64,000 nt of DNA from a virus. The notes under the pieces were generated by a model. That model saw only the letters and a list, made by a program, of their open reading frames with translations. It did no database searches and was not told the origin of the DNA. The stretch's first letter is position 1, and the number at the start of each line of letters is the position of its first letter. Shown here one piece after another: positions 27,202 to 51,854 of the stretch. The position numbers were made by a program, and so were the translations under genes. The stretch spans positions 39,167 through 103,166 of IMG/VR virus record IMGVR_UViG_3300017752_002245. One strand, written 5' to 3'.

Positions 27202-27858
27202 ATGAGATATGTAGGTTATTCAGAATTCTACCATGATGCCGCACTTGCCATTGTTGAAAACGATGGTACAGTTGCTTTCGCATCCCAATCAGAAAGATAC
27301 AGTGGTGTTAAGATGGATGGTCTAATCCATCCACCTATGTGGAATATGGTTAATGACGATGACCATGTTACTTTCTATGAAGATATGGAAGAACGTGTTA
27401 GAGTCATGGGAGGTCTAAGAACCTTCGGTGCTAGGGGCAACCTTGCTAACAAAAATACTGTTGCTAACCCAGAAATAACTGAATTAAAACGACCAATCCA
27501 CTCGATGGCAATATATGATGATTTCAATAAACATCATGAAAGTCATGCCGCATTAGGATTCTTTACCCGTCCATGGGAATCAAAAGAAGATACTGTAATT
27601 GTATCTGTCGATGGTTCGGGAGAAGTAGAATCTACCGTAATCTATGACCACAATTTTAAACCCTTAAAAGTAGTTAAATGGCCTCAATCCTTGGGGACTC
27701 TCTATGGTATGGGATGTACTGCAATAAAACTAAAACCTCTGAGAGATGAATATATTCTTATGGGTCTTTCTGCATATGGTGAATCTAAGGATGAACTATA
27801 TCAAATCTTAGAAGATTCCTATTACTGGCATGAAACTAAAAAAGGGAAAGAAGTGTGA
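27202..27858 (+). CDS. carbamoyltransferase (NodU/CmcH-like), N-terminal fragment ending at in-frame TGA
   Basis: This 218-residue segment has YSEFYHDAALAIVENDG, KHHESHAALGFF (metal-binding His) and VDGSGEVESTVI, the Kae1-like core of O-carbamoyltransferases (usual length 500-600). The reading frame continues unchanged past the TGA at 27856-27858 into the C-terminal part beginning near 27877, so one codon change breaks the gene. Intact enzymes carbamoylate sugar or antibiotic hydroxyls using carbamoyl phosphate and ATP. It could be a pseudogene, a two-subunit enzyme, stop readthrough or a sequencing error. Confidence 0.8.
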   Translation: MRYVGYSEFYHDAALAIVENDGTVAFASQSERYSGVKMDGLIHPPMWNMVNDDDHVTFYEDMEERVRVMGGLRTFGARGNLANKNTVANPEITELKRPIHSMAIYDDFNKHHESHAALGFFTRPWESKEDTVIVSVDGSGEVESTVIYDHNFKPLKVVKWPQSLGTLYGMGCTAIKLKPLRDEYILMGLSAYGESKDELYQILEDSYYWHETKKGKEV

Positions 27859-27876
27859 GATATAGTTCAGTTCAGA

Positions 27877-28728
27877 ATGGAATGTATTGCAGATAGTGAA
27901 CTTGCGTATAGAGACTTTCAGTTTGAAAAACAATTTAAGAAACTAGCAAGGAGACATAGGGAAGAAGACGTAGCTGCAACAGTTCAGAAGTTCTTCGAGA
28001 CAGAGATTATAAAACTTATGACCGAAGCACGACAATACGGTTCTAAGTTAATCTTTGCTGGCGGTTGCGCCCAAAACGTTGTTGCAAATTCTTTAATTCG
28101 TCCTATGTTTGATGAGATGCATATTCCAATCGCACCCAATGATGCGGGTAATGCTCTTGGTTGTGCTGCTTATACATGGCATAAGGAGACAGGCGGAACA
28201 CATCTGAAGTGGTCTCCATACCTTGGACATAACATAGAACGTGACATAGACCCTAAAGAAGTTGCACAATACCTTGCAGACAATAAGGTGTGTGGAGTTG
28301 CAAATGGACGTGCAGAATACGGGCCTCGTGCATTAGGTAATCGTTCACTACTTGCAGATGTAAGATATGATGTAAAGGATACAGTTAATGATATCAAACA
28401 GAGACATAGATTTAGACCATTCGCACCTGCTATACTATCAGAACATGCGAAAGATTACTTCGAAGGGCCAATGAATCAATACATGCAATTTACATCAATT
28501 GCAAAACACGATTATTCTTCGGTAACTCATGTAGATGGAACTGCAAGGGTTCAGTTAGTTGAACCTGATTGTGAGTCCGTCCTACGTCAGATACTAGAAG
28601 AGTATTACAAATTAACGGGTGTACCGATGCTACTAAATACATCATTGAACATTCGAAATAAACCTATGGTCAATACCATAGAAGATGCTATAGAATGGGA
28701 AAAAAAATATAAAGTAAAAGTATTTTAG
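27877..28728 (+). CDS. carbamoyltransferase, C-terminal fragment
   Basis: Same frame as the preceding fragment. From ATG 27877 the product is 283 residues, with IFAGGCAQNVVANS and PNDAGNALGCAAYTWH (Kae1-like phosphate loop) and the C-terminal carbamoyltransferase domain with YGPRALGNRSLLAD, RHRFRPFAPAIL and PMLLNTSLNIRNKPM. No convincing ribosome site precedes this ATG, so separate translation may be poor. Sequence conservation appears full-length, which argues that the break is recent or tolerated. Confidence 0.8.
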   Translation: MECIADSELAYRDFQFEKQFKKLARRHREEDVAATVQKFFETEIIKLMTEARQYGSKLIFAGGCAQNVVANSLIRPMFDEMHIPIAPNDAGNALGCAAYTWHKETGGTHLKWSPYLGHNIERDIDPKEVAQYLADNKVCGVANGRAEYGPRALGNRSLLADVRYDVKDTVNDIKQRHRFRPFAPAILSEHAKDYFEGPMNQYMQFTSIAKHDYSSVTHVDGTARVQLVEPDCESVLRQILEEYYKLTGVPMLLNTSLNIRNKPMVNTIEDAIEWEKKYKVKVF

Positions 28729-33176: not shown

Positions 33177-33728
33177 ATGAAAATAGGACTCACGCAAAGA
33201 GTCCTCACGCACAATAAACAAGTACATGATTCCTTAGACCGTTGTTGGTATACATTTCTAAGGGGTCATGAACTTGTTCCTATCCCAAATCGTGAAGACT
33301 TGGATTACGAATCCCTTGCAGAATCTCTAGACCTTCTCATAATTACAGGAGGAGGAAACGAGCGTCTTCGAATTACTACAGAAGTAAACATGGCAACAGA
33401 GATGTCAACTCTGAGATTACCCATACTTGGTATATGTCATGGTGCATTTTTACTCACAGAGATTCTTGGTGGTAAAACAAGAACAGGTAAAGAGAATCAC
33501 TATGATGTAGAACATATTGTACACAGTAAGTATGAACCTCATTTAGTTAATAGTTTTCACAATATTGCTATTGACAAATGCCCCCCAAATAGTGTACAAT
33601 TATGTACAGATGCAGAAGGTGATTGTGAATCTTGGATAAAGGATAACATCTGTGCAATCGTGTGGCATCCTGAACGGATGATAATACCCTATATACCTAC
33701 AGAGATTATGAAGGCAACAGGACTATGA
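33177..33728 (+). CDS. class I glutamine amidotransferase-like (peptidase C26/PuuD-like)
   Basis: A 183-residue protein. LLIITGGGNERL is the oxyanion-strand region, ILGICHGAFLL carries the nucleophilic Cys, and IVWHPERM gives the His-x-Glu of the triad. The family hydrolyses gamma-glutamyl bonds or supplies ammonia to partner enzymes. It begins at the base after the ferritin-like stop and overlaps the cupin by 4 nt, suggesting a shared pathway. Confidence 0.75.
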   Translation: MKIGLTQRVLTHNKQVHDSLDRCWYTFLRGHELVPIPNREDLDYESLAESLDLLIITGGGNERLRITTEVNMATEMSTLRLPILGICHGAFLLTEILGGKTRTGKENHYDVEHIVHSKYEPHLVNSFHNIAIDKCPPNSVQLCTDAEGDCESWIKDNICAIVWHPERMIIPYIPTEIMKATGL

Positions 33729-36121: not shown

Positions 36122-36828
36122 AGATGTTTGTACACATCCCTAAAAATGGTGGGATGACAATAAGAAAGAATCATAAGATTCGTCAACAAGTGTTATTAGC
36201 AACACCTGACAATCATAAGAACAGAGCATATACTCAAGGTCTTGAGGAAAAGATGTCACAAACAAAAGACCACCAAGGATATGAACATGCACGTTGGAGA
36301 GACTGGAAACAAGATTTAAAAGACACACATAAAGCAGTTGCAATTGTTCGTAATCCGTGGGACAGAGTATGTTCTCGTTATATGTTCGCAAAGAAGGTAA
36401 TGGAATACGAAGGAACTCAACCAGAAAAATATGCAGACACTTCATCATTTGAGGCATTCCTAGAGGAACGTCACATATGGGGTGGACAAGAATACTTATG
36501 GCATCGTGCGATACGTGGATGGTATCCCGCATATGACCATGTATCAGATGAAGAGGGGAAAAACCGTTGTGACATCCTACGGTTTGAAAACTATAACGAA
36601 GATGTCAAACTATATTTTGGATTGTTAGAGAATCCAGAAGCAAGAAATATTACTCGTGTACCTAATGACAAAGGTAAGACAGGATACGGTACTTCTTATA
36701 GGGATATATACACTAAAGATACTATTCAGATAATTGCTGACTGGTATAAGAAAGACATTGACTATTGGGGATTCGATTTCGATAGTGGTGCAACGAGGAA
36801 TTATTGGAATGTTAAAACAACTATTTGA
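36118..36828 (+). CDS. carbohydrate sulfotransferase-like enzyme
   Basis: ATG 36118 overlaps the previous stop (ATGA); a GTG at 36106 is the alternative. The 236-residue product has FVHIPKNGGMTIRK, the 5'-phosphosulfate loop of carbohydrate sulfotransferases, and VAIVRNPWDRVCSRY, the 3'-phosphate site. These two motifs make it the clearest sulfotransferase in the window. It should transfer sulfate from PAPS to a glycan hydroxyl. Confidence 0.75.
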   Translation: MKMFVHIPKNGGMTIRKNHKIRQQVLLATPDNHKNRAYTQGLEEKMSQTKDHQGYEHARWRDWKQDLKDTHKAVAIVRNPWDRVCSRYMFAKKVMEYEGTQPEKYADTSSFEAFLEERHIWGGQEYLWHRAIRGWYPAYDHVSDEEGKNRCDILRFENYNEDVKLYFGLLENPEARNITRVPNDKGKTGYGTSYRDIYTKDTIQIIADWYKKDIDYWGFDFDSGATRNYWNVKTTI

Positions 36829-37426
36829 CAAATACGATTGTGATAAGGGTACAGAGAAACACCATTATTATAAAGAATACGAACCCTACATGGAGTCTGT
36901 AAGAGAAGACCCCATCAATCTATTGGAGATTGGAACATTTAAAGCAGCGTCTACTCGTGCATTTCATGAATATTTTCCTAATGGAACAATCTATACGATT
37001 GATATATTTGCAAGGACAAACCCAAAAGACCTAGACATCCTACACAAAGATAGAGTTGAATGGTTAAAGTGGGATTCTACTGACGCAGCACTTGGAAAGA
37101 AAATACGAGAAACTTGGGGTGATGTAAAGTTTGATTTTATTATTGACGATGGCGCTCATTGGCCAGAAGCAAATAGATTAACTTTTGAGAACTGTGTTTC
37201 TTTTATGAAAGAAGATGGAACATACTTTGTCGAAGATGTCTGGCCTATGGATAAAATGAGTCGTAGTGAATTAGACAACCCATGGTTATTAAGACAGTCT
37301 GAAAGATATGATATGTTAAAACACATTAGGTTTATGAATCATTTAGATAGTTATAACACAACTCACTATGACCGCAGAAAAGAAACTAAATGCGGTGATA
37401 CATATATAATTGCAATAAAAAACTAG
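36809..37426 (+). CDS. class I SAM-dependent methyltransferase
   Basis: Start 36809 gives MLKQLFDKYDCDKGTEKHHY, with GAGGA about 10 nt upstream; longer frames overlap the sulfotransferase by more. The 205-residue product has LLEIGTFKAASTRAF (motif I), IYTIDIFA (acidic ribose ligand) and FDFIIDDGAHW (motif IV). It resembles sugar O-methyltransferases of cephalosporin-hydroxylase/TylF type. Confidence 0.7.
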   Translation: MLKQLFDKYDCDKGTEKHHYYKEYEPYMESVREDPINLLEIGTFKAASTRAFHEYFPNGTIYTIDIFARTNPKDLDILHKDRVEWLKWDSTDAALGKKIRETWGDVKFDFIIDDGAHWPEANRLTFENCVSFMKEDGTYFVEDVWPMDKMSRSELDNPWLLRQSERYDMLKHIRFMNHLDSYNTTHYDRRKETKCGDTYIIAIKN

Positions 37427-37438
37427 GATAGCAAGTGC

Positions 37439-38776
37439 ATGATAAAATTAGTTTTATTTGATTTAGACGGTGTTCTTGTAGACACCAAACAAATGCATTT
37501 TGATGCATTGAATCAAGCATTGGAAAAGAATGATTACCTTCCAATAACTCTAAATGAACATCTTTTAAGATTCGATGGATTGACAACTGACCAGAAGTTG
37601 GATATTTTAGAAATCCCTGATAAAGATAAAAGAAAAATTCATACTCGTAAACAGGCATATACGTATATGACTCTGAATACGATTAAACCAAACCATGATA
37701 TTATAGAGTTATTCGAACAACTTAGAGGTGAAGGATATAAGATTGGTGTATGTTCCAATGCAATTGAAAAGACCGTAGAGAATTGTTTAGAACAACTCAT
37801 GTTAACTCCATGGTGTGACATTGTATTAAGTAGTTGGGATGTTGAAAACAACAAACCTCATCCAGAAATTTATTGGAAAGCAATGTCCAAGATGGGAGTC
37901 TATCCTGATGAAACCGTGATAGTAGAAGATTCTCCGACAGGATTAACTTCTGCATATGGTTCTGGTGCAAATGTAATAAGAGTTGGTTCTCCCGCAGACA
38001 CCAACGTTAAGTTACTTGATAGAATAAAAGAACCCCAAAATACAATACCTAAATGGGAAGATAAAGAACTCAATGTTCTTATTCCTATGGCGGGTGCGGG
38101 TAGTCGTTTTCAGAAGGCAGGATATACTTTTCCAAAACCATTGATTGATGTTAATGGTAAACCTATGATTCAACATGTAGTTGAAAATCTAGGTCTTGAT
38201 GCAAACTATATCTTTATTGTACAGAAGGAACACAGAGAAAAGTATAACTTAGATTCTATGTTAAATCTAATTGCACCTGACTGTACTATTGTAGAAGTAG
38301 ATGGTATCACTGAAGGTGCTGCATGTACAACACTACTTGCAAAACAGTATATTGATAATGACCAACAATTGTTTATTGCAAACTCAGACCAGTACGTAGA
38401 ATGGAACTCTCTAGATTTCATGTATAAAATGCAATCAACCTCAGTAGATGGTGGTATTGTTACTTTCAAATCAACACACCCTAAGTGGAGTTATGCAAAG
38501 ACAGATAATTCTGGAAGAGTTTATAGAGTTGCAGAGAAAAATCCAATCAGTGATAACGCAACTGTAGGATTTTATTACTGGAAAAAGGGTAGTGATTATT
38601 GCGAATACGCAGAGAAAATGATTGAAGATGATATTAGAGTTAACAACGAATTCTATGTTTGTCCTGTATTTAATGAAGCAATTAAAGATGGAAAACATAT
38701 TGCAACATTCACCGCATCACAAATGTGGGGTCTGGGAACACCAGAAGACCTAGAAAGATATCTATTGAGTTGGTAA
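37439..38776 (+). CDS. bifunctional HAD phosphatase-sugar nucleotidylyltransferase fusion
   Basis: A 445-residue two-domain protein. Residues 1-205: FDLDGVLVDT (HAD motif I), GVCSNA (motif II), KPHPEIYWKAM (Lys of motif III) and IVEDSPTGLTSA (motif IV), as in beta-phosphoglucomutase-like phosphatases. Residues 212-445: IPMAGAGSRFQKAGY then FPKPLIDVNGKPM, the NTP-transferase signature of sugar-1-phosphate nucleotidylyltransferases. It would dephosphorylate a sugar phosphate and activate the sugar with a nucleotide. The exact sugar is unknown. Confidence 0.85.
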   Translation: MIKLVLFDLDGVLVDTKQMHFDALNQALEKNDYLPITLNEHLLRFDGLTTDQKLDILEIPDKDKRKIHTRKQAYTYMTLNTIKPNHDIIELFEQLRGEGYKIGVCSNAIEKTVENCLEQLMLTPWCDIVLSSWDVENNKPHPEIYWKAMSKMGVYPDETVIVEDSPTGLTSAYGSGANVIRVGSPADTNVKLLDRIKEPQNTIPKWEDKELNVLIPMAGAGSRFQKAGYTFPKPLIDVNGKPMIQHVVENLGLDANYIFIVQKEHREKYNLDSMLNLIAPDCTIVEVDGITEGAACTTLLAKQYIDNDQQLFIANSDQYVEWNSLDFMYKMQSTSVDGGIVTFKSTHPKWSYAKTDNSGRVYRVAEKNPISDNATVGFYYWKKGSDYCEYAEKMIEDDIRVNNEFYVCPVFNEAIKDGKHIATFTASQMWGLGTPEDLERYLLSW

Positions 38777-39529
38777 ATGAAGACTGCATTATGTTTGTCT
38801 GGTAGATGGAATGAATACTGTCACCAGAAATGGATGGATAGAACACAAGAGATAATTCCTCACGACAAGATGTTCACGGGTACATGGAAGGGTCAAGACT
38901 ATGATGCTGACTACTACTTTGATGACCCTGAGAATCTGTACCATCCAGTATTCGACACCGAACCCTATCCCGATGACGCAAGTACACTAAGGAGAGATAT
39001 CTTTCCTCATTACTTGGAGAGACATAAAGAAGACCCTACCTATCACAACAGTCAGTTAAGACACGCATACGCAAGTGCGAACTGGCACAAACAACTTCTC
39101 ATACACAATGAGATGATGAAGTCGATACCTAAAGAATATGATATGATTATTCGAACAAGGTTTGACGTAATCGTGTCTGACCAACTCCCTTGGAAAGATA
39201 TGATTAAGGATTCATATGACAGGTTAATTCCGAAGGGATTCAACTGTATGAATTACTATGGTACACATGACTTCAATAAGATTAAAGGTATGGGAAAAGA
39301 GACTACCTACTACATCAATGATGCATTGATAATCCATCCCAGAGAATGTTGGGATACCGATTTAGTGGACTCACTATATAAAGATAAGAAGTTAAAAAGT
39401 GCAGAAGAGGGATGGTATCAAATACTATCTGAACCGTTTGGATTTTATCATGAAAGTTATCATGGTGGATGTTACCTATCAGAGAGATGGGAGTATGTAA
39501 GAGATGTTGATGAAAGCCTTCATAATTAG
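38777..39529 (+). CDS. glycosyltransferase-like / LPS-synthesis-type protein
   Basis: A 250-residue protein starting MKTALCLSGRWNEY, similar to the ALCxSGxxR starts of a phage/LPS (WavE-like) family, with YDMIIRTRFDVIVSD in the middle (RxRFD, typical of these enzymes) and EEGWYQILSEPFGF near the end. The ATG directly follows the previous stop. The function as a sugar transferase is inferred. Confidence 0.55.
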   Translation: MKTALCLSGRWNEYCHQKWMDRTQEIIPHDKMFTGTWKGQDYDADYYFDDPENLYHPVFDTEPYPDDASTLRRDIFPHYLERHKEDPTYHNSQLRHAYASANWHKQLLIHNEMMKSIPKEYDMIIRTRFDVIVSDQLPWKDMIKDSYDRLIPKGFNCMNYYGTHDFNKIKGMGKETTYYINDALIIHPRECWDTDLVDSLYKDKKLKSAEEGWYQILSEPFGFYHESYHGGCYLSERWEYVRDVDESLHN

Positions 39530-40223
39530 TATGATAAACAATCACGAGTCCACAGTTGCGACTCGACATGTTATTGAATCAATAAAGAAAACTGGAACAA
39601 AACTAGAACCTATCATTCTACCCGCTACCACACCAAAGACTATTGGTGAAGGGATAGACCAGTTGGATATGAATGGTGTTGCATGGACGTATCCTCTAGA
39701 TGAACACCAAGACGGTCTTGATATGAAAACAGGACTACGTCTTACTCACTACAAAACTGCGAATCATAGTAATCGTGTTGCATGTCTAATATCTCATATG
39801 AGATGTTGGCAGAAGTCGATTGACCTTGATGAAACTATTGTTGTACTGGAACACGATGCATTATTTACAGATTCTCTTTTACCAGAGGACTTGACTTCTG
39901 AGTGGAAGGGTGGTATAATAGGCTTAAATAATCCAATAGGTGCGACACGTAGAGCGCACGTATTTGATGCACAAGTGAAAAAAATACATGGACTACAGGG
40001 TGTTCCTTCAGTAGATGATTGGGATGTACCCCAAGGTCTTGCGGGTAACTCTGCATATATGATATCACCTAAGGCAGCTAAGAAACTGATAAATAAGGTG
40101 AAAGAAATCGGAATGTGGCCAAACGATGCACTAATGTGTAAACAATTGTTTCCTTGGTTACAAGTCGTATATCCATATTACACCACAATACAGAAAGGGT
40201 TGAAGTCAACTACAACACAATAA
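39510..40223 (+). CDS. glycosyltransferase family 25-like protein
   Basis: Start 39510 (MKAFIISMINNHES) overlaps the previous gene by 20 nt. The 237-residue product has the GT25 pattern: NRVACLISHMRCWQKSID, TIVVLEHDALF (ExD) and GNSAYMISPKAAKKL, then MWPNDALMCKQ and YTTIQK near the end. Related to the genes at 31042 and 40405. It should transfer galactose or another hexose. Confidence 0.72.
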   Translation: MKAFIISMINNHESTVATRHVIESIKKTGTKLEPIILPATTPKTIGEGIDQLDMNGVAWTYPLDEHQDGLDMKTGLRLTHYKTANHSNRVACLISHMRCWQKSIDLDETIVVLEHDALFTDSLLPEDLTSEWKGGIIGLNNPIGATRRAHVFDAQVKKIHGLQGVPSVDDWDVPQGLAGNSAYMISPKAAKKLINKVKEIGMWPNDALMCKQLFPWLQVVYPYYTTIQKGLKSTTTQ

Positions 40224-40408
40224 TGGAAATACCACCCGTATCATCAATACCCAAGGTAACAGACCGTTCGTATACTGTTGAACGAGTCAATAAAGTTGCA
40301 GGCGGAGATTATAAAGTTGAAAGTACAACTTATTATGTTACTACATATGATAATAAAGGGAGAATAACGACTACAACTAATACTAGTCAATTGAGTTTTT
40401 TAATATGA
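40223..40408 (+). CDS. 61-residue protein of unknown function
   Basis: The ATG overlaps the previous stop (TAATG). The product (MEIPPVSSIPKVTDRSYTVE...) is Thr/Val-rich and probably beta-stranded. No family recognised. It is sandwiched between two GT25 genes and overlaps the next start by 4 nt. Confidence 0.5.
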   Translation: MEIPPVSSIPKVTDRSYTVERVNKVAGGDYKVESTTYYVTTYDNKGRITTTTNTSQLSFLI

Positions 40409-41052
40409 AAGCGTTTGTAATTACAATAAAAGATAATCCATCGTCTGTTCAAGTTGCTGATAGGTGTATTGAATCGGGTAAACGTCATGGACTAACGATT
40501 GAAAAGTTTGATGCAATCACCCCCGCAGATAATCCTGTAGAACTATTACAGACAAGAGGTATTGACCCAATACAATTTGATGAGAAATATTCTCGTAATT
40601 TAAATTGTATTTCTGCATTCTTATCACACTACGCATTGTGGGAAGCTTGTTCTAAGGGTAACGAAGACTTTATTATCTTTGAACATGATGCAGTTATGGT
40701 TACACCTTTACCAATGTTGTTTCCTAACTATGTAATGAACATAGGTCATCCATCTTACGGTAAATGGAACAAACCAAACTTTCTGGGACTTAATCCTTTA
40801 ACCACCAAAAGATATTTTCCTGGCGCTCATGCGTATTGGGTTACTCCCAAAGGTGGTAAACTATTAGTAGAGAATGCACCATTGTATGCAAAACCTACCG
40901 ATGTATATTTAAATTTAGATACCTTCCCTTGGTTACAAGAATGTCATCCATTTGTTGCAGAAGCACGGGACACATTTACTACCATTCAAGTAGAAGAAGG
41001 ATGTCTTGCAAAACACAATTGGAAAGAAGGATATGACATTATCGATGCTTAA
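40405..41052 (+). CDS. glycosyltransferase family 25-like protein
   Basis: A 215-residue protein with AFVITIKDNPSSVQVADRCI, NLNCISAFLSHYALWEAC, FIIFEHDAVM (ExD) and GAHAYWVTPKGGKLLV: all GT25 landmarks. It shares its MKAFxI start with the gene at 39510, so the two probably arose by duplication. Confidence 0.72.
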   Translation: MKAFVITIKDNPSSVQVADRCIESGKRHGLTIEKFDAITPADNPVELLQTRGIDPIQFDEKYSRNLNCISAFLSHYALWEACSKGNEDFIIFEHDAVMVTPLPMLFPNYVMNIGHPSYGKWNKPNFLGLNPLTTKRYFPGAHAYWVTPKGGKLLVENAPLYAKPTDVYLNLDTFPWLQECHPFVAEARDTFTTIQVEEGCLAKHNWKEGYDIIDA

Positions 41053-41710
41053 AGTTTTTTTGACAGGATGTGATAATAACACAGAATGGCAATTACCATG
41101 GTTTTTAGAAAACTATAAAAAACACAATACTATACCTATTGTTCTTGCAGATTTTGGTATGTCTAAAGAGGCACGTGCAAAAGCAGAAGAAGACTTTGAT
41201 TTAGTAATAACAGTTAAGAGTGAAGCACAGGGATGGTTTAAGAAACCTCGTGCGATTCTAGATGCAACTAAGTTAGATGGTGTAAAGAAAGTTTGTTGGT
41301 TGGATACTGATTGTGAAGTAACCGATGACATATCACCAATATTCAATCTATCAGAATATGGTAAGTTGGGTATGGTAAAAGACCGACCTTGGAGTACACG
41401 TAGAAGTGAACTTGGAAGTTGGTATAACTCTGGAGTTGTTCTGGTGGAAAACACTCCAAATATCCTGAAGAGTTGGGCAGACGAATGTATTCGAAACCCT
41501 GTTCAAGGAGACCAAGAGGTTCTTTATATAATGATGGGAGGGGATGAGATTACGAAGATGTCGTATATTAAACCTATACCTCATGTGTACAACACTTTAC
41601 GGTTGGACTATATAGATAACATACAAGTAAAGAACCCTAAAATAATCCATCACACTGGAAAAAAAGGGAACGAAGTAATAAGGAGACAGATAAATGAATT
41701 ATCTACTTGA
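41045..41710 (+). CDS. glycosyltransferase, GT8-like
   Basis: ATG 41045 gives MLKVFLTGCDNNTEWQLPWF with an 8-nt overlap; ATG 41033 is the alternative. The 221-residue product has VCWLDTDCEVTDDI (DxD), WYNSGVVLVEN and GDQEVLYIMM, and IIHHTGKK at the end, fitting GT8/GT-A enzymes. It is the last clear glycosyltransferase of the module. Confidence 0.65.
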   Translation: MLKVFLTGCDNNTEWQLPWFLENYKKHNTIPIVLADFGMSKEARAKAEEDFDLVITVKSEAQGWFKKPRAILDATKLDGVKKVCWLDTDCEVTDDISPIFNLSEYGKLGMVKDRPWSTRRSELGSWYNSGVVLVENTPNILKSWADECIRNPVQGDQEVLYIMMGGDEITKMSYIKPIPHVYNTLRLDYIDNIQVKNPKIIHHTGKKGNEVIRRQINELST

Positions 41711-50378: not shown

Positions 50379-51854
50379 ATGAAAAAAATAATATTAATAT
50401 TAGCGTTGATGTCATTTAACGTTAATGCAAATGAAATCGAAGAAGTTGTTGTAGTAGGTGCAAAAATATACCAAGGTGTTGCAGACCCTACCTCAGACAA
50501 CATATTAACAACAATCGAACCTACCAAACCATTCGTCCTTGGGGCATTTAATGGTCTTCAATTGTCTGGAACAGATACAAAACATACTGGTGTTTTTAAG
50601 AACGGTATCCCAGTAAATGACCCTAGTTCTGGATGGTATGACTTTGGTCAAGACCTATCAACTAATCAAAGGGTTACAATTATATCTGGTGCAAACAGTG
50701 TTAGATATGGTAGTGGTTCAATGGCAGGAGTTGTTCTATTAGAGGATGACTTTGGAAAAGGATTCTATACCACAGTATCGACAGATAAAACTAAGATGAT
50801 GGTAGAGCATGAATTCTTTCAAATCGCAACTTATCGTGGAACATCTGGTTCAGTTAAGACAGACAACGATGAAGTCGATTGGTATGAAAACAAGACATTT
50901 AAATTAGGACATGATATCTACAATCTAGAAGTTGTAGACTACTCGTATGATTATGACGGTTGTTATAATGAATACTTTGTATTGACTGACGATTGTAATG
51001 TTGAAGGTCAGAAGATTAATGTTTCAATTGACCATGATAGATTTACTCTAGGTCATACTACAAATGAATCAATCTATAATACTGGAACTGTAATTGAATC
51101 CGATAGAACTTATGGTGATATCCTTTTATATGATGACAATGGTCATGAACTAGGTGTCACTGCACAGAAAGAAACTTACGGTGAGAGAAAAAGATATACA
51201 AACGCTGCTTACTATATTTGGTCTAATGACAATGTAAGTCTTGGATATAGGTATGAAGAAGGTGAACGTATTGTAAGACTAGGATTAGAAAACAATGGAT
51301 ATAGATTCTCTATGGGTAATAGTTATCGACTACCTAATCTATACGAACAGTTTGGTGATTCTTGGGTATCAGCAAATCCTAACTTGTTACCAGAACAAGG
51401 ACGTGGAACTGAATTAGGATACAAAGGATTATCTCTGTATTACTATAAGTTTGATGAAGGAATAGATTTTGATATGAATGCTTATTCTTATATCAACACT
51501 GGTGAATATAGGTCTAGAGGTATTAGATTAGAAAAGAACATTGGTAAGGTATTTGTATATGGTGAGATTACAGATTCAGATAAACTAAGAGTTCCAAACT
51601 ATAGAACAAAGATTGCATATACAGACTATGGATTTACTATTGAGTATCTAGGAGAGTTTGATAAAGGTGTTGACTTTGATGGTAGACTAATTGACGATGT
51701 CAGTACATTTAATATCAGTTATAGTTTCACTAATGGTGCAATAGGTACTTATAAACTTGAGATAGAAGACGCATTAGATAACTCGTATGAGTATATTCCA
51801 GACTATGCGGCTGGTGGACGTATCTTTAGACTTAGTTGGAATCTTTTATGGTAA
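50379..51854 (+). CDS. TonB-dependent outer-membrane receptor-like protein
   Basis: A 491-residue protein with a signal peptide (cut after NVNA, residue 17), a TonB-box-like EEVVVVGA (21-28), a plug (NGLQLSGTDTKHTGVFKNG, NDPSSGWYDFG, GANSVRYGSGSMAGVV) closely resembling BtuB-type receptors, and a barrel with YRLPNLYEQFGDSWVSANPN and LLPEQGRGTELGYKG. It ends in Trp, as exported barrels do. The barrel (about 365 residues) is smaller than BtuB's (about 460). It follows the gene-32 terminator with AAGGA as ribosome site. It could mask the host receptor against superinfection or import a metal or vitamin. No promoter is obvious. Confidence 0.88.
   Translation: MKKIILILALMSFNVNANEIEEVVVVGAKIYQGVADPTSDNILTTIEPTKPFVLGAFNGLQLSGTDTKHTGVFKNGIPVNDPSSGWYDFGQDLSTNQRVTIISGANSVRYGSGSMAGVVLLEDDFGKGFYTTVSTDKTKMMVEHEFFQIATYRGTSGSVKTDNDEVDWYENKTFKLGHDIYNLEVVDYSYDYDGCYNEYFVLTDDCNVEGQKINVSIDHDRFTLGHTTNESIYNTGTVIESDRTYGDILLYDDNGHELGVTAQKETYGERKRYTNAAYYIWSNDNVSLGYRYEEGERIVRLGLENNGYRFSMGNSYRLPNLYEQFGDSWVSANPNLLPEQGRGTELGYKGLSLYYYKFDEGIDFDMNAYSYINTGEYRSRGIRLEKNIGKVFVYGEITDSDKLRVPNYRTKIAYTDYGFTIEYLGEFDKGVDFDGRLIDDVSTFNISYSFTNGAIGTYKLEIEDALDNSYEYIPDYAAGGRIFRLSWNLLW

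What the first reader, a model, noticed from the sequence alone, without database searches (positions are those of the whole stretch)
37439..38776. HAD phosphatase fused to a sugar nucleotidylyltransferase
One polypeptide combines a beta-phosphoglucomutase-like phosphatase with a sugar-1-phosphate nucleotidylyltransferase. These are normally separate steps of, for example, GDP- or ADP-heptose synthesis, so the fusion predicts which sugar the module uses.
Basis: partly seen in the sequence, partly recalled or inferred. Interest (0 to 1): 0.55.

Follow-up and report, generated by a model that had tools for sequence, protein, structure and literature searches.

The report
Phage enzyme fusing phosphatase and nucleotidyltransferase
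An aquatic phage gene joins a phosphatase to an enzyme that attaches small phosphorylated molecules to nucleotides; the fusion is real and common in such phages, but nothing found ties it to the sugar heptose, and its true substrate is unknown.

Summary
Window 37439-38776 encodes one 445-aa protein: a HAD-IA (beta-phosphoglucomutase-like) domain, residues 1-190, plus a GT-A nucleotidylyltransferase (NTase), 211-442. Main catalytic residues of both domains are conserved in 90 family members. The window lies in a 103-kb T4-like phage record. The fusion is not peculiar to it: at about 52% identity it occurs in cultured Synechococcus phages, and at least 586 IMG/VR stretches encode relatives. In bacteria the same two enzymes are separate genes of polysaccharide clusters, usually with a GDPD-like phosphodiesterase. 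A short GDPD-like protein also accompanies the phage fusion in 60 of 90 loci. The heptose reading is not supported: the HAD is not GmhB-type, the NTase misses the HddC model, and GmhA-type isomerases and GHMP kinases are absent from all 16 phage records tested, with a PfkB kinase in 1. Best guess: the HAD domain supplies or trims a sugar- or polyol-monophosphate that the NTase turns into a nucleotide-activated donor for the phage's glycosyltransferases. Substrate and nucleotide remain unknown. New variant of a known kind; modest interest.

The parts
37439..38776 (+). HAD-NTase fusion gene, 445 aa (P0001)
   Evidence: full-length relatives
37439..38008 (+). HAD-IA domain, residues 1-190; motifs D8/D10 (37460-37468), S106 (37754-37756), K139 (37853-37855), E163-D164 (37925-37930); helical cap inserted between motifs I and II
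   Evidence: Pfam/NCBIfam; conservation; model; VIA Z 22.9 to beta-PGM
38009..38068 (+). linker, residues 191-210, variable in length among relatives
   Evidence: alignment
38069..38764 (+). GT-A nucleotidylyltransferase domain, residues 211-442; GAGSRF (38093-38110), K233 (38135-38137), D317 (38387-38389), EKNPIS (38534-38551), GLGTPEDL (38729-38752)
   Evidence: Pfam; PHROG 3980 3e-76; 4evw 2.5e-23 and Z 27.4; conservation
36734..37426 (+). upstream neighbour, methyltransferase-like (Methyltransf_24 6.4e-5, under the cut-off)
   Evidence: conserved next to the fusion in sister phages
38777..39529 (+). downstream neighbour, starts at the base after the fusion's stop; no Pfam match; its cluster occurs in 30 of the 91 loci given
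39504..41710 (+). two GT25-like ORFs (39504-40223, 40405-41052) and one GT8-like ORF (41006-41710, under the cut-off): possible users of an activated donor
   Evidence: Pfam
33177..33728 (+). class-I glutamine amidotransferase of the same gene run; best NCBIfam match gamma-glutamyl-CDP-amidate hydrolase, 54.9 bits against a cut-off of 250
   Evidence: in sister phages; none in INPHARED

Best explanation
A phage-encoded bifunctional donor-making enzyme. Shown by sequence and model: both folds, conserved main active-site residues, fusion as one conserved protein. Inferred: the N-terminal HAD-IA domain acts as a phosphohydrolase that makes (from a bisphosphate) or limits the pool of a small sugar- or polyol-monophosphate, and the C-terminal NTase couples that monophosphate to a nucleoside triphosphate (CTP is my guess, from reported substrates of the COG1213 group, whose membership I did not test) to give an NDP-activated donor for the phage's own glycosyltransferases. 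The fusion most likely arose by joining neighbouring genes of a bacterial polysaccharide module (phosphodiesterase, HAD, NTase, degenerate NTase paralogue, cupin). Substrate and nucleotide are not determined.
For: Both active sites kept over 52-100% identity. Fused rows lie on one side of one branch in both domain trees, 23 fused against 7 (HAD) and 16 (NTase) bacterial rows. HAD and NTase occur as separate genes together with a GDPD-like gene in Pseudomonas, Ruegeria, Acetobacter, Scandinavium, Rhizobium and Marinifaba, in several beside ABC export, WavE or O-antigen ligase genes; in Rhizobium K1/93 they are in one frame 17 bases apart. The window module holds GT25-like, GT8-like and sulfotransferase-like genes. 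Related phage NTase domains are fused to sugar-phosphate enzymes instead: RpiB in Bellamy and DHBP synthase in S-SKS1. [quoted passage not shown]
Against: A phosphatase before an NTase needs a bisphosphate, and no kinase that would make one was found in the module; it would have to be a host metabolite. The GDPD-like partner is missing from the window's clade (0 matches in records of 149, 141 and 144 kb). Nucleotide and substrate are not derived from any test; COG membership was not tested. Second metal ligand of the NTase not identified. I found no biochemical data for this fusion or for 4evw.
Confidence: 0.5

Rival explanations
1. The HAD domain is a phosphomutase (6-phosphate to beta-1-phosphate) and the protein turns a hexose-6-phosphate straight into an NDP-sugar, needing no other enzyme.
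For: Closest solved HAD folds are beta-phosphoglucomutases; D10 is kept, and H20 and K71 align with H20 and, by my recalled numbering, K76 of beta-PGM. Explains why no kinase is present.
Against: beta-PGM's phosphate-binding Arg49 (role recalled) falls on T50, which is T in 89 of 89 rows with letters there. Score far under the bPGM equivalog cut-off, 89.6 vs 189.4.
Confidence: 0.2
2. The module makes CDP-glycerol or a similar polyol donor: the GDPD-like enzyme frees a polyol phosphate from glycerophosphodiesters, the NTase activates it and the HAD domain trims excess.
For: GDPD-like protein in 60 of 90 loci, direct neighbour in 40; in INPHARED it occurs in 16 records, all 16 with this NTase (16 of 18 Synechococcus NTase records); GDPD-like gene in the bacterial module.
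Against: Absent from 7 of 16 phage records carrying the fusion, including the window's own clade. GDPD is a broad fold whose substrate here is unknown; no CDP-glycerol transferase seen in the window's Pfam scans, which covered only part of its genes.
Confidence: 0.15
3. The window's module makes a phosphoramidate or phospho-amino-acid group as in Campylobacter: NTase = phosphoglutamine cytidylyltransferase, amidotransferase 33177-33728 = gamma-glutamyl-CDP-amidate hydrolase.
For: Best NCBIfam match of the amidotransferase is that hydrolase; the gene stays in the same gene run in four sister contigs whose fetched stretch covers it and the whole fusion (L005-L008).
Against: Only 54.9 bits against a cut-off of 250, and this model also rings below its cut-off in all 14 control genomes; PPDK_N, which I take (recalled) to mark the glutamine kinase, in 0 of 16 records; no relative of the amidotransferase in INPHARED, which holds phages with the fusion.
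Confidence: 0.06
4. Heptose activation as the first reader suggests (GmhB-like phosphatase plus HddC/HldC-like NTase).
For: Same order of reactions; weak match of the NTase to WcbM of the 6-deoxy-D-manno-heptose pathway (5xhw, E 3.4e-6, 117 residues).
Against: HAD class wrong, HddC model not matched, GmhA-type isomerase 0 of 16, GHMP kinase 0 of 16, PfkB kinase 1 of 16.
Confidence: 0.04

Closest known systems
HAD-NTase proteins of Synechococcus phages (B23 gp352, S-CAM9 S820908_181, S-PRM1, S-8S55, DSL-LC03), annotated as glucose-1-phosphate thymidylyltransferase, nucleoside-diphosphate-sugar pyrophosphorylase or HAD hydrolase
   Same: Same two domains in the same order, about 52% identity over the whole length
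   Different: Different phage groups; a GDPD-like gene is found in all 11 of these records and not in the window's record
Bacterial polysaccharide module with separate HAD, NTase, GDPD-like phosphodiesterase, NTase paralogue and cupin genes (e.g. Pseudomonas pMRCP2, Marinifaba aquimaris)
   Same: HAD about 44% and NTase about 47% identical to phage domains
   Different: Not fused: seven plasmid loci with both genes inspected plus Marinifaba, none fused; 0 fused in 398 Pseudomonadota genomes, which include Marinifaba
PDB 4evw, Vibrio cholerae nucleoside-diphosphate-sugar pyrophosphorylase (function not established in what I found)
   Same: NTase fold Z 27.4 and motifs PMAG..SRF, EKNPISD, Y..P..NE.I
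   Different: Single domain, 28% identity
Lactococcus beta-phosphoglucomutase (1lvh)
   Same: HAD fold with cap, catalytic residues, H20
   Different: Arg49 position is Thr; not fused; bPGM cut-off not reached
Cyanophage NTase-RpiB (Bellamy) and NTase-DHBP synthase (S-SKS1)
   Same: Related NTase domain (30-43%) in glycan modules
   Different: Fusion partner is a sugar-phosphate isomerase or synthase

Membership tests
HAD subfamily IA hydrolases | NCBIfam TIGR01509 (HAD-IA variant 3) cut-off | tested here: met
   60.3 vs 29.4 bits
HAD subfamily IA hydrolases | motif I DxD, motif II S/T, motif III K, motif IV acidic pair | tested here: met
   89 of 89 (D8, D10; one row has no letters there) and 90 of 90 rows
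beta-phosphoglucomutase | bPGM equivalog cut-off TIGR01990 | tested here: not met
   89.6 vs 189.4 bits
beta-phosphoglucomutase | cap Arg49 equivalent (role recalled) | tested here: not met
   T50 in 89 of 89 rows with letters, by the alignment; the gap placement there is not firm
GT-A sugar nucleotidylyltransferases (PF00483) | Pfam gathering score | tested here: met
   48.2 vs 21.2 bits
GT-A sugar nucleotidylyltransferases (PF00483) | signature GxGxR...K and metal-binding Asp | tested here: met
   G219, G221, R223, K233, D317 in 90 of 90
GT-A sugar nucleotidylyltransferases (PF00483) | second metal ligand | tested here: inconclusive
   no Asp/Asn seen at the expected place in GLGTPEDL; the alignment served badly because its reference rows look like KdsB
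GmhB (heptose bisphosphate phosphatase) | HAD-IIIA subfamily cut-off TIGR01662 | tested here: not met
   36.3 vs 44.6 bits
HddC (heptose-1-phosphate guanylyltransferase) | match to NCBIfam NF049965 | tested here: not met
   not among the 22 families at E <= 1e-3 for the NTase domain
heptose pathway | GmhA-type isomerase (SIS_2) in the same phage | tested here: not met
   0 of 16 records; several records are fragments
heptose pathway | heptose kinase of PfkB or GHMP type in the same phage | tested here: not met
   PfkB 1 of 16 and not in G000; GHMP 0 of 16
COG1213 cytidylyltransferases (LicC, IMPCT, Cj1416, CpgD) | CTP specificity | not testable with these tools
   needs enzymology
COG1213 cytidylyltransferases (LicC, IMPCT, Cj1416, CpgD) | COG1213 domain | not tested
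   no COG library at hand
Campylobacter phosphoramidate pathway | glutamine kinase (PPDK_N domain, recalled) | tested here: not met
   0 of 16 records
Campylobacter phosphoramidate pathway | amidotransferase equivalog NF045546 cut-off | tested here: not met
   54.9 vs 250 bits; over the cut-off in 0 of 1

The most novel reading that the evidence does not exclude
The fusion, in most loci with a minimal 147-aa GDPD-like phosphodiesterase, is a compact, widely spread phage route to a nucleotide-activated sugar or polyol that has not been described, condensed from a rare bacterial five-gene polysaccharide module; phages would use it to build or alter surface glycans during infection.
Probability: 0.3. 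Interest if true: 0.6.

Novelty: new variant of a known kind. Interest (0 to 1): 0.36.

Why it matters
Nucleotide-sugar enzymes carried by these phages are filed under single-domain names. A fusion this common in virus contigs, with a frequent partner gene and an unfused bacterial counterpart, points to a shared but unidentified donor molecule, and gives a clear candidate protein and substrate classes to assay. It also shows that the present labels on the cyanophage homologues (glucose-1-phosphate thymidylyltransferase and others) rest on one domain only.

Tried and rejected
Heptose reading: rejected. Phosphoramidate reading, first suggested by the amidotransferase match: low, no PPDK_N domain, weak score, and the model rings below cut-off in all 14 control genomes. 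Genome scan: of 117 relatives the best 80 were kept, nearly all short matches around residues 210-250; the eight read look like KdsB and say nothing on the fusion, so the bacterial counterpart was found through plasmids instead. The GDPD-like protein had no Pfam match at E <= 0.05 in B23; its assignment rests on the conserved HR..EN / ExD / HD pattern (pattern recalled), on the annotation in DSL-LC03 and on weak profile matches to the bacterial phosphodiesterases (1.7e-7 to 4.2e-5). In VIA's list only NTases and beta-PGMs are shown; absence of other families there is no evidence. Literature: the searches listed no paper that I could recognise as treating this fusion or the function of 4evw; the library lacks most subscription journals. 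Passages only were read of PMC12275187 and PMC10714395. A viral structure hit called glycosyltransferase/phospholipase of Bodo saltans virus might be an NTase joined to a phospholipase-type domain; not followed up.

Full report
What is there. The ORF at 37439-38776 on the + strand encodes 445 residues without a stop. Twelve bases separate it from the preceding gene, and the next gene starts at the base after its stop codon. Residues 5-182 match HAD_2 (3.4e-36) and 217-438 NTP_transferase (1.4e-12). The window is bases 39167-103166 of a 103,166-base virus record with ribonucleotide reductase and T4-type structural genes (recognised by eye). An AlphaFold2 model from 45 aligned sequences has mean pLDDT 87.8 and pTM 0.62; the halves match beta-phosphoglucomutase and 4evw.

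Is each domain active? In the alignment of 90 fusion proteins, D8 and D10 are kept in 89 of 89 rows with letters, residue 106 is S in 88 and T in 2, and K139, E163 and D164 are kept in 90 of 90; in the NTase, G219, G221, R223, K233 and D317 are in 90 of 90. What I could not settle is the second metal ligand of the NTase. The bacterial relatives aligned (Pseudomonas, Acetobacter, Legionella) end in a similar G/F-x-P-x-DL motif, so whatever stands there seems a family trait rather than decay.

How widespread. In INPHARED 11 records hold a match over at least 80% of the protein, all Synechococcus phages, at 47-52%. Four contigs besides the window's record carry it at 100%, one of them truncated.

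Neighbours. I clustered the ORFs of 91 loci; 90 hold the fusion in one cluster. A protein of about 147 aa occurs in 60 of these 90 and is the direct neighbour in 40 (22 upstream, 18 downstream); flanks are cut by contig ends in many loci. It carries the conserved pattern of glycerophosphodiester phosphodiesterases (HR, EN, ExD, HD; pattern recalled). In INPHARED it occurs in 16 of 50,697 records, all 16 being among the 18 Synechococcus records with this NTase; the two without are both S-SKS1 records. Many of these records are near-copies. In 16 longer records it is found in 9, and not in the window's record or its clade (G000, G001, G002, G004); in a second set, many of them short fragments, in 9 of 21. 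So the association is strong but not obligatory.

Bacterial counterpart. On plasmids the two domains are separate genes. I read ten such loci. Seven hold both HAD and NTase (Pseudomonas, Ruegeria, Acetobacter, Scandinavium, two Rhizobium, Azospirillum), none fused; in Scandinavium the two are about 5 kb apart. Five of the seven have a GDPD-like gene by BLAST and profile; the other two were not tested. Marinifaba shows the order phosphodiesterase, HAD, second NTase, cupin, NTase and then two genes that read like an ABC exporter (exporter recognised by eye). The second NTase looks degenerate in Pseudomonas (no GxGxR..K, no NSD; read). Three further loci (Legionella, two E. coli plasmids) have a related NTase in other company: a kinase-like gene (by eye), small HAD and WavE in Legionella; an aminoglycoside-phosphotransferase-like gene and a CDP-glycerol transferase family gene in one E. 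coli; a phosphodiesterase, a kinase and an aldolase in the other. In 398 Pseudomonadota genomes, 4 matched at 1e-30, 2 had both HAD and NTase, 0 as one frame. In trees of both domains the fused rows lie on one side of one supported branch (100/100 HAD, 97/95 NTase), which agrees with a single fusion but, unrooted, does not prove it.

Which sugar? Nothing names it. The HAD domain is HAD-IA and fails the beta-PGM equivalog and the HAD-IIIA cut-off. The NTase matches no NCBIfam model above its cut-off. Heptose companions are missing, and PPDK_N, my marker for glutamine kinase, is missing too. Related phage NTases fused to RpiB or DHBP synthase show that this NTase stock has been joined to sugar-phosphate enzymes more than once, which supports reading the HAD as supplier of the NTase's substrate. 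Papers, in passages read, report COG1213 cytidylyltransferases acting on phosphosugars, phosphocholine, phosphoglutamine and phosphoglycerate (PMC12275187), and propose a phosphotransferase-plus-cytidylyltransferase pair for flagellin glycan in C. difficile (PMC10714395). Hence the best guess of a small phosphorylated sugar or polyol with CTP, at confidence 0.5 for the general mechanism only.

Verdict. The parts are known folds, the cyanophage homologues are already in GenBank under single-domain names, and a bacterial unfused version exists, so it is a new variant of a known kind. What lifts it above ordinary is its spread in aquatic phages and its link with a GDPD-like partner.

Noticed in passing
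window 50379-51854 (+): 491-aa protein with a TonB-dependent receptor Plug domain (PF07715, 8e-7, above the cut-off) among T4-type phage genes, unusual for a phage.
   Followed up: no
window 27202-28728 (+): NodU-type carbamoyltransferase interrupted by one in-frame stop in this record; an intact copy exists in a sister phage record at 99.8% identity.
   Followed up: partly
window 33177-33728 (+): Class-I glutamine amidotransferase nearest to gamma-glutamyl-CDP-amidate hydrolase but far under its cut-off; conserved in sister phages, no match in INPHARED.
   Followed up: partly
L094 11992-13149; L097 8992-10149; L098 6001-7428: Related cyanophage NTases carry other partners: RpiB-type isomerase (Bellamy; SynMITS9220M01 by equal length and synteny, not scanned) and DHBP synthase (S-SKS1).
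   Followed up: partly
L199 8033-11447 (-): Compact bacterial module phosphodiesterase-HAD-NTase paralogue-cupin-NTase next to ABC-export-like genes in Marinifaba aquimaris.
   Followed up: partly
BFVD A0A2H4UUJ1 (no window coordinates): Bodo saltans virus protein named glycosyltransferase/phospholipase matches the model; perhaps an NTase joined to a phospholipase-type domain.
   Followed up: no
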